From: Candidatus Avelusimicrobium luingense
GTDB taxonomy: Bacteria; Elusimicrobiota; Elusimicrobia; Elusimicrobiales; Elusimicrobiaceae
Direction of reading: 5' to 3'
NCBI GenBank assembly: GCA_900315845.1
Contig: OOHK01000003.1
Location: forward strand, 44,820 to 108,819
DNA length: 64,000 bases
Shown here: in pieces, positions 5,147-60,807 of the stretch
Layout: each line of letters opens with the position of its first letter
Position numbering within the stretch: position 1 is the stretch's first letter
Notes under the pieces: model-generated
Told to the model about the DNA's origin: nothing
The model's database searches: none
The model's input: only the letters and a program-made list of their open reading frames with translations
Program-made: the position numbers and the translations under genes

Positions 5147-5178
5147 CTTGAAAAATCAAGAAAAAAAGACCATACTAT
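5147..5178 (+). promoter_or_regulatory. Predicted pilin promoter with -35 palindrome
   Basis: CTTGAAAAATCAAG (5147-5160) is a perfect inverted repeat that includes the -35 TTGAAA (5148-5153). A run of seven A follows, then CATACT (5171-5176) as -10 at 17 bp spacing. The same TTGA-N-TCAA arrangement precedes three other pilin-like genes in the window. Confidence 0.6.
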
Positions 5179-5202: not shown

Positions 5203-5739
5203 ATGAATAACAAAGCATTTACGTTAATAGAACTTTTAGTTGTTGTGCTGATTATCGGCATTTTAGCGGCGGTGGCTGTACCACAGTATCAAAAAGCCGT
5301 TTGGAAAAGCCGCACGGCCCAATTATATGCCGCAGTTAAAGCAATCACTACGGCTCAAGAAACTTACTTTATGGCTAACGGAACGTATGCCACACGGTTT
5401 GATGAGTTGGATATTGCCTTTGATAATTTAACAACAGCGGACGCGAGTACTACGGGATACGCCACTTCTTCAACCGATGCCATCAGAAAAACCGACTACA
5501 TGGAGTTGGTTCTTAATAACAATTCTCCCCAAGGGGTTTGGTCTACCGCCGTATTTAATAAGGCCCCCTATTCCGGACAGGGCATTGTATTTGTCCACCA
5601 AGGGACGAGTTCTTATGAGAAAAAGTTTTTCTGCGCGGAAGAAACTTCCACTTCTCCCGCCGGAAAATTCTGTAAAAAGGTCATGGGAATATCTGCTTCT
5701 CCCACTACTTATTTAGGAGTACGCTTATATCCTTTATAA
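5203..5739 (+). CDS. Type IV pilin-like protein, family A
   Basis: A 178-residue prepilin: short basic leader (MNNKA), then FTLIELLVVVLIIGILAAVA, the hydrophobic helix anchoring the subunit in the membrane and packing in the filament core, with Glu at +5. The predicted prepilin-peptidase site follows Ala, not the usual Gly. The helix continues as PQYQKAVWKSRTAQLYAAV, then the motif ETYFMANGTYATRFDEL and a variable C-terminal domain with two cysteines (FFCAEE, KFCKKVMG) that may form a disulfide. AAAGGAG precedes the ATG at good spacing. It has its own promoter and terminator. Filament subunit or minor pseudopilin cannot be decided from the sequence. Confidence 0.9.
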   Translation: MNNKAFTLIELLVVVLIIGILAAVAVPQYQKAVWKSRTAQLYAAVKAITTAQETYFMANGTYATRFDELDIAFDNLTTADASTTGYATSSTDAIRKTDYMELVLNNNSPQGVWSTAVFNKAPYSGQGIVFVHQGTSSYEKKFFCAEETSTSPAGKFCKKVMGISASPTTYLGVRLYPL

Positions 5740-37540: not shown

Positions 37541-37611
37541 GCGGGCGTGGTTCAATGGTAGAACACTAGCCTTCCAAGCTTGTGACGTGGGTTCGATTCC
37601 CATCGCCCGCT
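37541..37611 (+). tRNA. tRNA-Gly (TCC)
   Basis: The acceptor arms GCGGGCG and CGCCCGC pair fully. The anticodon loop is CTTCCAA (anticodon TCC) and the T arm has GGGTTCGATTCCC. The 3' CCA is not encoded. It heads the cluster tRNA-Gly, tRNA-Thr, tRNA-Thr, tuf. Confidence 0.95.
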
Positions 37612-37624
37612 TTGACAATTTTCT

Positions 37625-37697
37625 GCTGGGGTAGCTCAGTCGGTAGAGCATCTCCATGGTAAGGAGAAGGTCGTGGGTTCGATTCCCACTCCCAGCT
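37625..37697 (+). tRNA. tRNA-Thr (GGT), copy 1
   Basis: Acceptor GCTGGGG/TCCCAGC, anticodon stem TCTCC/GGAGA with loop ATGGTAA (anticodon GGT), and T loop TTCGATT. No encoded CCA. Confidence 0.95.
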
Positions 37698-37733
37698 TAG
37701 CAGATTTGCAGTACAGTAGTAAGGTAGTAGAGT

Positions 37734-37806
37734 GCTGGGGTAGCTCAGTCGGTAGAGCATCTCCATGGTAAGGAGAAGGTCGTGGGTTCGATTCCCACTC
37801 CCAGCT
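37734..37806 (+). tRNA. tRNA-Thr (GGT), copy 2
   Basis: The 73 nt are identical to copy 1, 109 bp downstream, with unrelated sequence between them. No encoded CCA. tuf follows 41 bp later. Confidence 0.95.
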
Positions 37807-39335: not shown

Positions 39336-39410
39336 GGGGGTGTCGGTTAACTGGTAAACCACCGGTCTCCAAAACCGGGACTGAAGGTTCGAGTCCTTCC
39401 GCCCCTGCCA
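39336..39410 (+). tRNA. tRNA-Trp (CCA)
   Basis: Acceptor GGGGGTG pairs with CGCCCCT (two G-U). The D stem is GGTT/AACC, the anticodon loop CTCCAAA (anticodon CCA) and the T arm GAAGGTTCGAGTCCTTC. Unlike tRNA-Gly and tRNA-Thr nearby, its 3' CCA is encoded. Confidence 0.94.
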
Positions 39411-41705: not shown

Positions 41706-42248
41706 TTAAGGCAATTTATAAACACGCGAAGAGCCATTGTAAGAGGTTTTTGTTCCTTTGAAAATTTTTTCACAATAACTCCCGGCAGCGAGTTGGAAAC
41801 CGGCCGCATATTCTATACAAAATACTGTATCTAACGGGATTTCTTCTTCGCTATGTCCGGGGAGTCCTTCCCATTGATATTGAAATCCTGCGCCGCGATA
41901 CTTCCCTGTTAAGCGTTCCATCCGTATTTGCTTATCTGAAGTTTGGTTAAATAGTATGTTCCAATCTTGTGTTGAATGTACTTCTGGATATGCTGTGTAA
42001 ACCTTGTCGGTTCCGGTCCAAGAAGGAATTTCTATATCAAAATCGGCCAATGTCTCCGGATAATTGCCGTTTGCCATCTTATATACTTGTCCCGCTTCTC
42101 CAAGAGTTTTTAATAAAGTCATTGCTTGCACGGCTTTAGATTTTTCCACGGCTTTTTGATATTGCGGTACGGCCACCGCCGCCAAAATACCGATAATCAA
42201 AACGACTACTAATAATTCAATAAGCGTAAACGCTTTGTTGTTTTTCAT
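41706..42248 (-). CDS. Type IV pilin-like protein, family A
   Basis: A 180-residue prepilin with leader MKNNKA and FTLIELLVVVLIIGILAAVA, then PQYQKAVEKSKAVQAMTLLK and KMANGNYPETLADFDIEIP. The variable domain carries cysteines in TVFCIEYAAGFQLAAGSYC, then KIFKGTKTS and a C-terminal KLP, the family-A ending. The true start is ATG 42248 (GGAG upstream), not the longer in-frame extension. The promoter has a 10-nt A-run in its spacer. It is closest to the pilins at 5203, 46640 and 55847. Confidence 0.9.
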   Translation of the reverse strand: MKNNKAFTLIELLVVVLIIGILAAVAVPQYQKAVEKSKAVQAMTLLKTLGEAGQVYKMANGNYPETLADFDIEIPSWTGTDKVYTAYPEVHSTQDWNILFNQTSDKQIRMERLTGKYRGAGFQYQWEGLPGHSEEEIPLDTVFCIEYAAGFQLAAGSYCEKIFKGTKTSYNGSSRVYKLP

Positions 42249-42282: not shown

Positions 42283-42311
42283 ATATTATGGTTTTTTTTT
42301 TGACTTGTCAA
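42283..42311 (-). promoter_or_regulatory. Pilin promoter with palindrome and 10-nt A tract
   Basis: On the minus strand, TTGACAAGTCAA (a perfect palindrome, 42300-42311) contains the -35 TTGACA. Ten A follow, then TAATAT at 17 bp as -10. Confidence 0.65.
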
Positions 42312-46580: not shown

Positions 46581-46608
46581 TTGACATCGTTTTTTTTTTT
46601 GCTAGTTT
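46581..46608 (+). promoter_or_regulatory. Pilin promoter with an 11-nt T tract
   Basis: TTGACA (46581-46586) is a consensus -35. Eleven T (46590-46600) fill most of the 16-bp spacer, then TAGTTT (46603-46608) is the best -10. The palindrome of the other pilin promoters is not kept here (TTGACATCG). A TTTTGCC/GGCAAAA hairpin lies just upstream (about 46556-46577). Confidence 0.6.
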
Positions 46609-46639: not shown

Positions 46640-47185
46640 ATGAACAATAAAGCATTTACGTTAATAGAACTATTAGTGGTAGTTTTGATTATCGGTATAT
46701 TGGCGAGTGTAGCCTTGCCGCAATATCAAAAAGCCGTGTGGAAAAGTCGCAATGCACAACTGAAAACATTGGCACAATCTGTTGCGCAAGCAGAGCAAGC
46801 ATACTATATGGCCAACGGGCAATATTCTTTTAATTTTGACGTGTTGGATTTAGATTTGCCGCTTTCCGCGCCCGTTCAAAACGGCTCGGCGGAAGATAAA
46901 TGCGGATTTGCCATTGGCGGTACCGATGCGGTTCGCCGCGGAAAAAATTTTGAAATTGTGTTAGGCGGGCACGCAAATGATCCTTCTTATATAAGCGTGC
47001 AAGCCGTGTGGCTGGAGAATCCCTATAAATGTACGGGGTTTTTCTTTGATAGTATCAATCAACATCTCCGGTGCCGCGAAAAACATTCTTCCGGTGATAG
47101 CACCATAGGTGATTTTTGCGCCAAATTGGAAAAAGGTACTTATACTGACACTACGGGCAGTTGGTATTATTACGATTTGCCCTAA
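46640..47185 (+). CDS. Type IV pilin-like protein, family A
   Basis: A 181-residue prepilin: MNNKA leader, FTLIELLVVVLIIGILASVA, then LPQYQKAVWKSRNAQLKTLA and the YYMANGQYSFNFDVLDLDLP region. Cysteines lie in DKCGFAIGG, NPYKCTGFF, QHLRCREKH and GDFCAKLEKG, so two disulfides are possible. It ends YYYDLP. AAGGAG precedes the ATG. Its first ~60 codons are nearly the same as those of the pilin at 5203, while the rest differs. Confidence 0.9.
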   Translation: MNNKAFTLIELLVVVLIIGILASVALPQYQKAVWKSRNAQLKTLAQSVAQAEQAYYMANGQYSFNFDVLDLDLPLSAPVQNGSAEDKCGFAIGGTDAVRRGKNFEIVLGGHANDPSYISVQAVWLENPYKCTGFFFDSINQHLRCREKHSSGDSTIGDFCAKLEKGTYTDTTGSWYYYDLP

Positions 47186-54609: not shown

Positions 54610-55850
54610 CCACTTTTTTTATTAAAACGTTCGGGTGTCGCGTCAACCAAGTAGAAAGCCAAGCGCTTTTAGAAGATTTTTTACGCCATCATTTTACGCC
54701 TGCGGCCGATTTTGAAACGGCGGATATTTGCGTATTAAACACGTGTACCGTTACTCATCAGGCCGATAAAGATGTAGAAAAATTAATTCGCCAAATTCTG
54801 CGTCGCAATCCAAACACAAAACTGATTTTAACCGGGTGTTATGCTGCGGCGCACCGGGCGCATATTCGGGAGATTTTTCCCACCGCGCGAATCGTAGGAA
54901 AATACGATTTGGGCCGCGTGCTTTTTGATGAAGAAGATCTTTGTTGGACCGTGTCCGGACATGAAGGCCATAGCCGCGCGTTTATTAAAATTCAAGACGG
55001 GTGTGACTGTTTTTGCTCGTACTGCATTGTGCCGTTTGCACGAACGGAAAAACGCTCTAAACCGTTGGCGGATGTTTTAACGGAAATCAAAAATCTCGTA
55101 CAAAACGGGTTTGCCGAAATTGTACTTACGGGTATCAATATCGGTAATTTTTGCTGCCCGAAAACGGGGGCCGATTTAGCGGCACTCTGTGAAGAAATAA
55201 CCAAACTGCCGGGCAATTTCCGCGTGCGATTTTCGTCCATAGAACTCCAAACAGTAACGGATGGAATTATCCGCGCCATGCAAAATTATCCTGCGCGGTT
55301 TTGTAATTATTTGCACTTGCCGTTGCAGGCGGGGAGCGACCCGGTATTACAAGCGATGAACCGCCATTACAATACGGCGCAGTACGCCGCGCGCGTGGCG
55401 GACTTACGTAAAAACGTGCCCGGTATCGGCATTTTTGCAGACGTAATTGCCGGGTTCCCTACGGAAACAAAAGATAATTTTGAAGAAACGGTTGCTTTTA
55501 TCCGTGCCCAAAAATTGGCGGGGCTTCACGTGTTTAGTTATTCGCCGCGCCCCGGCACCAAAGCCGCCAAACTGCCGCAACTGCCCGCGGAAGAAATCAA
55601 ACGCCGCGCGGAAATTTTGCGCGCGTTGGATAAAGAGTTGCGGGGGCAATTTGCCGCATCTTTTGTAGGAACGGAACAAACGGTATTTGTGGAAGAATAC
55701 AAAGAAGGCCAAACGCGCGGGCTAACTTCCAATTTTCAAACCGTATTTATTGAAAACGCCCCGAAAGATTTACACGGTTTGGCGCATGTGAAAATTACGC
55801 ATGCCGACGCAAACTCCTGCTATGGGAAAGTTGTGCCTTTTACGGTTTAA
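54606..55850 (+). CDS. mtaB: tRNA t6A37 methylthiotransferase MtaB
   Basis: A 414-residue radical SAM methylthiotransferase converting t6A37 to ms2t6A in tRNAs reading ANN codons. The N-terminal UPF0004 domain binds a second 4Fe-4S cluster (FGCRVNQVESQALL, VLNTCTVTHQADKD, LTGCYAA: three Cys). The radical SAM motif is GCDCFCSYCIVPFARTEKRS. A short C-terminal TRAM-like domain follows. The 3' end overlaps the convergent pilin gene by 4 nt, with no terminator between them. Confidence 0.94.
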   Translation: MTTFFIKTFGCRVNQVESQALLEDFLRHHFTPAADFETADICVLNTCTVTHQADKDVEKLIRQILRRNPNTKLILTGCYAAAHRAHIREIFPTARIVGKYDLGRVLFDEEDLCWTVSGHEGHSRAFIKIQDGCDCFCSYCIVPFARTEKRSKPLADVLTEIKNLVQNGFAEIVLTGINIGNFCCPKTGADLAALCEEITKLPGNFRVRFSSIELQTVTDGIIRAMQNYPARFCNYLHLPLQAGSDPVLQAMNRHYNTAQYAARVADLRKNVPGIGIFADVIAGFPTETKDNFEETVAFIRAQKLAGLHVFSYSPRPGTKAAKLPQLPAEEIKRRAEILRALDKELRGQFAASFVGTEQTVFVEEYKEGQTRGLTSNFQTVFIENAPKDLHGLAHVKITHADANSCYGKVVPFTV

Positions 55851-56389
55851 GGTAATAAATAATATCTACCGGAGGCTCCGGTTGATAAAGTTCCTTTGAA
55901 TAACTTTACGCAATAATCTCCGGCTGATAAATTGGTATCAAACAAAAGATCTGCGCTGCTTGTTCTTTCAAAACATAAAATTTGTTGTTTAGGTGCTCCG
56001 GATGTTGTTTCAAACACCCATTCAAATCCGGCCCCGGCATATTTCCCGCGGGTTCGACAGATGTGCGTATTTACATAACCACCATTATTTTGAATTTCTA
56101 TTGTCCAATCGGCATTTGATCTGGGGTCTTTTGAGCCGCCCCAACAAGCGCTTCCGGTTGCCCACGGAATTTCTAGGGCCAGTTCATCAAAATTGGTGGC
56201 ATAATCGCCGTTAGCAATGTGATACGCTTCTTGGGCTTGAACAACTGACTTTAGCAAACTTAATGCTTGGGCTCCGCGTGATTTTTCCACGGCTTTTTGA
56301 TATTGCGGCAGCGCAACGCTCGCCAATATACCGATTATTAAAACTACTACCAATAATTCAATAAGTGTAAATGCTTTATTATTTTTCAT
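55847..56389 (-). CDS. Type IV pilin-like protein, family A
   Basis: A 180-residue prepilin: leader MKNNKA, FTLIELLVVVLIIGILASVA, LPQYQKAVEKSRGAQALSLL, then EAYHIANGDYATNFDELALE. The variable domain has Cys in TGSACWGGS, THICRTRGKYAGAGFEWVF, QILCFERTS and GDYCVKLFKGT. The GKYAGAGFEW stretch matches GKYRGAGFQYQW in the pilin at 41706, so these two are the closest pair. It ends RYYLLP. AGGA is upstream. Stop region overlaps mtaB. Confidence 0.9.
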   Translation of the reverse strand: MKNNKAFTLIELLVVVLIIGILASVALPQYQKAVEKSRGAQALSLLKSVVQAQEAYHIANGDYATNFDELALEIPWATGSACWGGSKDPRSNADWTIEIQNNGGYVNTHICRTRGKYAGAGFEWVFETTSGAPKQQILCFERTSSADLLFDTNLSAGDYCVKLFKGTLSTGASGRYYLLP

Positions 56390-56419: not shown

Positions 56420-56449
56420 TAGATATTGTATATATTTTTTGATTTTCAA
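56420..56449 (-). promoter_or_regulatory. Pilin promoter with -35 palindrome
   Basis: Minus strand: TTGAAAATCAA (56439-56449, TTGA-AAA-TCAA) contains -35 TTGAAA. A 6-nt A-run follows, then TATCTA at 18 bp as a probable -10. Confidence 0.55.
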
Positions 56450-60223: not shown

Positions 60224-60742
60224 TTATTGATTAAGCGTGTAGTACATATATCCAGTTTTTTGGCCTTCGGGCGTGAACGCACCCCACCCCGCTCGTTGAA
60301 CTCCCAAGGATTTACATAATTTAACGGCCTGCTTATTTGCCAGATTGGCTACACAATACGCCGCACCGTCTTCTACTGTCATGTGATGAAAAGAAAAGGA
60401 TAGATCGGATCTCCCACATACGACTGCCGGTGTGAAACCGCTGCTATGTATAATACAACAATACATTTCGTTATTTGACCCACAAGTGTTGCCATCTACT
60501 TGTGAGGAAGTGAATCCGGCGGGCAAATCTACGGCTAAAGAATCAAAATCGGTGGCCCAGGTACCATTGGCGGTAAAATATATTTCTGAGGCTTTAACTA
60601 ATGCGTTGGCGGTACTGCGCAAGTTGGCAAACCGCGATTTGTTGACGGCTTGTGTATATTGCGGCAAGGCCACGCTCGCTAAAATACCGATAATCAAAAC
60701 CACTACTAATAATTCAATAAGCGTAAATGCTTTTGTGTTCAT
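60224..60742 (-). CDS. Type IV pilin-like protein, family B
   Basis: A 172-residue prepilin with leader MNTKA and FTLIELLVVVLIIGILASVA, then LPQYTQAVNKSRFANLRSTA and KASEIYFTANGTWATDFDSL. The C-terminal domain has family-B marks: NTCGSNNEMYCCIIH, CGRSDLSFSFHH, AVKLCKSLGV and an ending GQKTGYMYYTLN. These recur in the pilins at 60931 and 63619 but not in family A. AAGGAG is upstream. The promoter has an 11-nt A-run. Confidence 0.9.
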   Translation of the reverse strand: MNTKAFTLIELLVVVLIIGILASVALPQYTQAVNKSRFANLRSTANALVKASEIYFTANGTWATDFDSLAVDLPAGFTSSQVDGNTCGSNNEMYCCIIHSSGFTPAVVCGRSDLSFSFHHMTVEDGAAYCVANLANKQAVKLCKSLGVQRAGWGAFTPEGQKTGYMYYTLNQ

Positions 60743-60779: not shown

Positions 60780-60807
60780 ATTATCGTTTTTTTTTTTGAT
60801 TTGTCAA
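60780..60807 (-). promoter_or_regulatory. Pilin promoter with palindrome and 11-nt A tract
   Basis: Minus strand: TTGACAAATCAA (60796-60807, TTGA-CAAA-TCAA) contains -35 TTGACA. Eleven A follow, then GATAAT (60780-60785) at 16 bp. Confidence 0.65.

What the first reader, a model, noticed from the sequence alone, without database searches (positions are those of the whole stretch)
5147..5160. Shared TTGA-N3/4-TCAA palindrome over the -35 of pilin genes
CTTGAAAAATCAAG here, TTGACAAGTCAA at 42300-42311, TTGAAAATCAA at 56439-56449 and TTGACAAATCAA at 60796-60807 each overlap the -35 of a pilin-like gene. The palindrome could be the site of a common regulator that blocks or replaces RNA polymerase contacts, coordinating an otherwise scattered pilin regulon.
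Basis: seen in the sequence. Interest (0 to 1): 0.7.

Follow-up and report, generated by a model that had tools for sequence, protein, structure and literature searches.

The report
Homopolymer-spaced promoters of pilin genes
The palindrome is only the -35 box plus the next few bases of a promoter that this gut bacterium (an uncultured Elusimicrobium relative) places in front of dozens of its roughly 125 pilin genes, and the promoter's real hallmark is an unbroken run of about 9-14 A or T between its two boxes, the kind of run that in other bacteria lets single genes be switched or tuned by replication slippage.

Summary
The four motifs exist as stated, each about 45-55 nt before a pilin's N-methylation segment. 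TTGA-N4-TCAA is truly enriched there genome-wide (13 of 35 sites; 0.2 expected); the N3 form is not (1 of 30). The operator reading fails: only 15 of 127 pilins have the palindrome, and in relative G004 35 of 39 listed copies of the same promoter lack it (mostly TTGACAAACCAA). What is kept is TTGAC, a pure A or T run (modes 11 or 12), about 16 nt between the boxes, and a -10.

In this genome 38 of 41 A/T runs of 9 or more lie before pilins. TTGAC followed by a run of 8 or more is found at 41 of 48 pilin promoters and 0 of 993 other TTGAC sites. In relative G011 promoters differ by about 1% while fourfold sites in adjoining codons differ by 35-54%, so the promoter is selected, not freshly copied. 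T-tract versions occur in 50 of 61 genomes of the genus. Run length offsets flank length, and near-identical orthologues can differ by one or two T.

Best reading: a dedicated sigma70-type pilin promoter whose spacer run makes each gene individually tunable by slippage, like porA/opc/fetA but family-wide. Slippage itself is not shown.

The parts
5148..5176 (+).
   Evidence: sequence read; pilin start at 5203
5203..5739 (+). Pilin gene, MNNKAFTLIELLVVVLIIG..., 178 aa
   Evidence: PF07963 match G000:C6:50022, ORF
42285..42311 (-). A-class promoter: TTGACA 42311-42306, AGTC, A10 42301-42292, C, -10 CATAAT 42290-42285; spacer 15
41706..42248 (-). Pilin gene, MKNNKAFTLIELL..., ATG at 42248
   Evidence: PF07963 match G000:C6:86990, sequence
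56425..56449 (-). Degenerate A-class promoter: TTGAAA 56449-56444, ATC, A6, possible -10 TACAAT 56430-56425; spacer 13
55847..56389 (-). Pilin gene, MKNNKAFTLIELL..., 180 aa
   Evidence: PF07963 match G000:C6:101128
60780..60807 (-). Canonical A-class promoter: TTGACA 60807-60802, AATC, A11 60797-60787, C, -10 GATAAT 60785-60780; spacer 16
60224..60742 (-). Pilin gene, MNTKAFTLIELL..., 172 aa
   Evidence: PF07963 match G000:C6:105484
46581..46608 (+).
   Evidence: G000:C6:91400-91423
46640..47185 (+). Pilin gene, MNNKAFTLIELL..., 181 aa, behind the T-class promoter
   Evidence: PF07963 match G000:C6:91459

Best explanation
The motif is the -35 hexamer TTGACA plus the first spacer bases of a sigma70-type promoter dedicated to the pilin family. 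The promoter is TTGAC, 2-5 flank bases, a pure A or T run of about 11-12, 1-2 bases, then a -10. The run fills most of the -35/-10 spacer and so sets its length, about 16 nt at the mode. I infer that the run is kept because replication slippage in it changes the spacing by whole bases, which would raise or lower each pilin gene independently and reversibly: a family-wide set of contingency promoters built like Neisseria porA, opc and fetA. Shown: the promoter design, its near-exclusivity to pilins, selection on the element, length variation mostly confined to the run, and conservation of total spacing. Inferred: that slippage happens often enough within a population, that it alters transcription, and that this is why the run is kept.
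For: 38 of 41 A/T runs of 9 or more in the genome are before pilins. TTGAC plus a run of 8 or more: 41 of 48 pilin promoters, 0 of 993 other TTGAC sites, Fisher P 1e-66. In G011 72 of 73 such runs are in this promoter context. Promoter p-distance 1.2% and 0.4% against 54% and 35% at fourfold sites next to it. Most copies have 5 non-run spacer bases while the run varies from 5 to 14. Total spacing is conserved by compensation: 4 flank bases go with T11, 3 with T12. Orthologues with 98% identity upstream and 95% downstream have T11 and T10; another orthologous set has T12, T12, T10. No A/T-mixed stretch of 10 or more replaces the pure run among 133 relatives' promoters, a set partly chosen by run. 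T-tract form in 50 of 61 genomes, reversed control 0. Precedent: PMC2791445, PMC4081817.
Against: Run length is sharply peaked (11 in about 88% of G011 copies; 12 in most others), and most close orthologue pairs have the same length, so hypermutability is not shown. MutS is intact. In G011 the bases flanking the run are as fixed as the boxes, which slippage does not need. No within-population variation or expression data were available.
Confidence: 0.55

Rival explanations
1. A fixed promoter in which the A/T run is a structural or protein-recognised spacer element. The element C-A11-C(G/A)AT, read in either orientation, would be bound by a dedicated regulator or favoured by the local sigma factor. 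All pilins would be co-expressed and slippage would be only a by-product.
For: The same core C-A11-CGAT occurs in A-class promoters (sense) and T-class promoters (antisense), and AAATC-A11-CGAT in a T-class variant. Length and flanks are nearly invariant in G011. Total spacing is under selection.
Against: Flanks differ between species (TCG, ACG, TTG, TGG, TA, CG) while the run stays. An A-tract need not be a pure homopolymer, yet mixed A/T runs were not seen. Avoidance of such runs elsewhere in the genome fits their being mutable.
Confidence: 0.3
2. One reading: TTGA-N3/4-TCAA is an operator for a common pilin regulator that competes with or replaces RNA polymerase at the -35.
For: N4 form enriched at pilins, P 2e-20; TCAA kept in nearly all listed copies in G011 and in 28 of 29 in G031.
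Against: Only 15 of 127 pilins carry it. Lost in 35 of 39 listed G004 copies with -35, run and -10 intact. Absent from the T-class promoters. N3 form not enriched. The left arm is simply the -35 hexamer.
Confidence: 0.05
3. No constraint: the promoters look alike because pilin genes were duplicated recently together with their promoters, or are homogenised by gene conversion or mobility of a short promoter segment.
For: In the own genome promoter class goes with pilin N-terminus type (19 of 20 A class with AFTL, 22 of 30 T class with GFTL; P 1e-6, counted, tested), so promoters were duplicated with their genes.
Against: Strong synonymous divergence right next to identical promoters in G011 excludes recent duplication. 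Conversion confined to about 29-54 nt at well over 100 sites is possible but unusual.
Confidence: 0.1

Closest known systems
Neisseria porA / opc / fetA promoters (homopolymer between -35 and -10; PMC2791445)
   Same: Unstable homopolymer inside the -35/-10 spacer of a surface-protein gene; length sets box spacing
   Different: Poly-G or poly-C there (general knowledge) and one gene each; here poly-A or poly-T, dozens to over 100 copies per genome, one gene family; switching not shown
Helicobacter pylori sabA T-tract rheostat (PMC4081817)
   Same: A/T homopolymer close to the core promoter of an adhesin; the paper reports T- or A-tracts next to -35 elements that modulate output by length
   Different: [quoted passage not shown] lies outside the -35/-10 spacer; here it is inside it
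Ordinary sigma70 promoters of Firmicutes and others
   Same: -35 and -10 boxes at about normal spacing; chance sites elsewhere share TTGACAAATCAAAAA
   Different: Ordinary spacers are neither conserved nor homopolymeric; these are, and almost only at pilins

Membership tests
Phase-variable promoter with homopolymer in the -35/-10 spacer (porA/opc/fetA type) | Homopolymer of about 9 or more inside the spacer of a recognisable promoter | tested here: met
   -35 TTGAC, run, -10 in order
Phase-variable promoter with homopolymer in the -35/-10 spacer (porA/opc/fetA type) | Drives a surface-structure gene | tested here: met
   PF07963 pilins downstream
Phase-variable promoter with homopolymer in the -35/-10 spacer (porA/opc/fetA type) | Run length differs between otherwise near-identical loci | tested here: inconclusive
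   T11 vs T10 and T12 vs T10 in two orthologue sets, same length in most others
Phase-variable promoter with homopolymer in the -35/-10 spacer (porA/opc/fetA type) | Reversible length change within a clone, with change of expression | not testable with these tools
   no reads, no cultures, no expression data
Operator of a dedicated DNA-binding regulator (TTGA-N3/4-TCAA palindrome) | Both arms conserved across copies and related species | tested here: not met
   right arm lost in 35 of 39 listed G004 copies; absent from T class
Operator of a dedicated DNA-binding regulator (TTGA-N3/4-TCAA palindrome) | A cognate regulator gene | not tested
   no candidate was sought
sabA-type T-tract rheostat | Tract outside the core promoter, changing alignment with UP-like elements | tested here: not met
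   tract lies between -35 and -10
Type IV pilin-like proteins (PF07963 N_methyl) | N-terminal prepilin methylation segment over the curated cut-off | tested here: met

The most novel reading that the evidence does not exclude
A genus-wide system in which up to more than 100 pilin genes per roughly 1.5-Mb genome each carry their own slippage-set promoter, so that one lineage can sample an enormous number of pilus coats without any regulator: the largest single family of promoter-type contingency loci known to me.
Probability: 0.35. Interest if true: 0.8.

Novelty: new variant of a known kind. Interest (0 to 1): 0.62.

Why it matters
Members of this gut Elusimicrobium-related genus carry 22 to well over 100 pilin genes in genomes of about 1.5 Mb, and I found nothing published on how they are expressed. 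A shared promoter with a mutable spacer would explain how a small genome uses such a repertoire. It makes a direct test possible from existing metagenome reads: count run-length variants at these sites against control runs. It would also extend spacer-homopolymer promoters from single genes of pathogens to a whole gene family in a little-known phylum.

Tried and rejected
Palindrome as operator: rejected on the G004 copies, the T-tract class and low coverage. The N3 form: not enriched. Recent duplication: rejected by the synonymous-site test. Promoter inversion between A and T classes (shared core in opposite orientation): no hybrid products among 73 G011 runs, left as a curiosity. The first extraction of pilin upstreams had some loci in the wrong orientation and was redone. 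The E. minutum genome paper (PMC2681670) is not held; searches of the held library found no description of these promoters or of pilin regulation in the phylum.

Full report
What the window is. It is bases 44820-108819 of contig C6 of a 1.46-Mb genome in 8 contigs. It has 128 PF07963 matches, about 125 over the cut-off.

The observation. In the whole genome TTGA-N4-TCAA occurs 35 times, 13 of them at pilin promoters (P 2e-20); TTGA-N3-TCAA occurs 30 times, 1 of them there. So the association is real for the N4 form.

What it is part of. I read the upstream DNA of all pilins. A rule-based sort finds about 20 A-tract promoters (TTGACA-AATC-A11-C-GATAAT) and about 30 T-tract promoters (TTGACA-TCG-T11-GC-TAGATT or TTG-T11-GT-TAAATT). 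A few of these are weak or mis-parsed: C7:131536, C6:101128, C8:54182 and C4:90213, whose true spacer is 17. The palindrome is a subset of the A class, and its right arm is TC followed by the start of the A run.

The run is the hallmark. Runs of 9 or more A/T are nearly absent from this genome except before pilins: 38 of 41 genome-wide. By eye the other three are one intergenic and two probably coding runs. Taking promoters by TTGAC position only, without asking for a run, 41 of 48 pilins have a pure run of 8 or more, against 0 of 993 other TTGAC sites in the held DNA (these include coding sites). In 280 kb of G011, 72 of 73 runs are in this promoter context.

It is under selection. In G011, 17 A-class promoters differ by 1.2% and 16 T-class promoters by 0.4% over 28-29 nt. 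This sample was chosen by a motif that already fixes most of the element, so the within-element figure is a lower bound; but the flank contrast is large: fourfold sites in the conserved N-terminal codons differ by 54% and 35%, and the 30 nt upstream by about 65%. Recent copying cannot give this pattern. The unselected list of all runs of 9 or more in G011 shows the same near-identity.

It is genus-wide. TTGAC-N1-5-T9+-N0-6-GNTA is in 50 of 61 genomes, up to 117 copies, with no match to the reversed control. Of 103 such sites read with flanks in seven relatives, 98 match a pilin start downstream by rule; of the other five, four show pilin-like sequence by eye and one is cut by a contig end. The A class is common only in G000, G004, G011 and G031. 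In G004 the commonest form is TTGACAAACCAAAAAAAAAAACAATAAT, so the palindrome is gone but the promoter remains.

How length behaves. In the own genome non-run spacer is usually 5 nt and the run 5-14, so parsed spacers run from about 8 to 18 with mode 16; the shortest may not be true promoters. Across the genus four flank bases go with T11 and three with T12, keeping the sum near 15: selection acts on total spacing. Orthologous loci with 98% identity upstream and 95% downstream have T11 and T10 (G020 L434, G012 L453). A second orthologue set has T12, T12 and T10 (G020 L437, G023 L448, G012 L455). Most other good pairs are T12/T12.

Mechanism. Unstable homopolymers between -10 and -35 are the known device of porA, fetA and opc (PMC2791445), and A/T tracts near the core promoter tune sabA and other H. 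pylori genes (PMC4081817). By analogy I think the run is kept as a tuning or switching device for individual pilins. The sharp peak at 11 or 12, intact MutS and invariant flanks in G011 also fit a fixed promoter whose run is recognised structurally. I put the first at 0.55 and the second at 0.3. No read-level data were available to decide.

Beyond the finding. While reading relatives I met a structured RNA leader before many pilins of G040, G060 and G044, and before other genes in G000 and G011. It has 58 predicted nested pairs, 29 with compensatory changes, and a long-range pairing of 9-11 bp whose sequence is different in every copy. No Rfam family matches. It is described under Noticed in passing and deserves its own study.

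Noticed in passing
L328, L331-L333, L335-L341, L344, L358 (relatives); own genome L121:6563-6788(-) = G000:C2:26563-26788, and a weak, probably degenerate L092:174-391(+); G011 L193:7083-7311(-), L196:16890-17087(-): A structured RNA leader of about 200 nt (TCTGTTTTTGGAACCGTA...TCCAAAAACAG...GTGCCGAGTGTTT...ACCACGGCTGTT...AGCAGCCGTTTTT) ends about 30-90 nt before pilin starts in relatives and also stands before other genes (a helicase-like gene in the own genome, a phosphodiesterase-like gene and a lipoprotein-like gene in G011). 58 predicted pairs, 29 with compensatory changes; a long-range pairing of 9-11 bp found in 12 of 13 copies (7 bp in the other by eye) with a different sequence each time; 3' hairpin plus U-run like an attenuator; no Rfam match at E up to 1 in six copies.
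   Followed up: partly
whole genome G000 and 60 relatives: Extreme pilin expansion: about 125 N_methyl genes in 1.46 Mb here, 22 to more than 112 (candidates up to 257) in relatives.
   Followed up: partly
L160, L169, L171, L173, L176, L179, L183, L185 just downstream of A-class promoters: A dispersed inverted-repeat element (about TGTCATTCCAAACTTGATTTGGAATCTC...GGTGAGATCCTGAATCAAGTTCAGGATGACA) sits between some promoters and the following DNA in G011, G031 and G004, apparently interrupting the 5' leader or start of the pilin gene.
   Followed up: no
G011:C12:2, G011:C31:2, G043:C8:298133, G011:C28 end: Several contigs end at or within a few dozen bases of these promoters, probably because promoter plus leader plus N-terminus is a repeat; pilin loci may therefore be under-assembled in short-read MAGs.
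   Followed up: no
G011 runs in L188-L207: The core C-A11-CGAT is the same in A-class promoters (sense) and T-class promoters (antisense); a T-class variant even shares AAATC-A11-CGAT, as if the spacer interior had been inverted between classes.
   Followed up: partly
window 37541-37806 and 39336-39407 (+): Three tRNA genes in a row and a fourth nearby.
   Followed up: no
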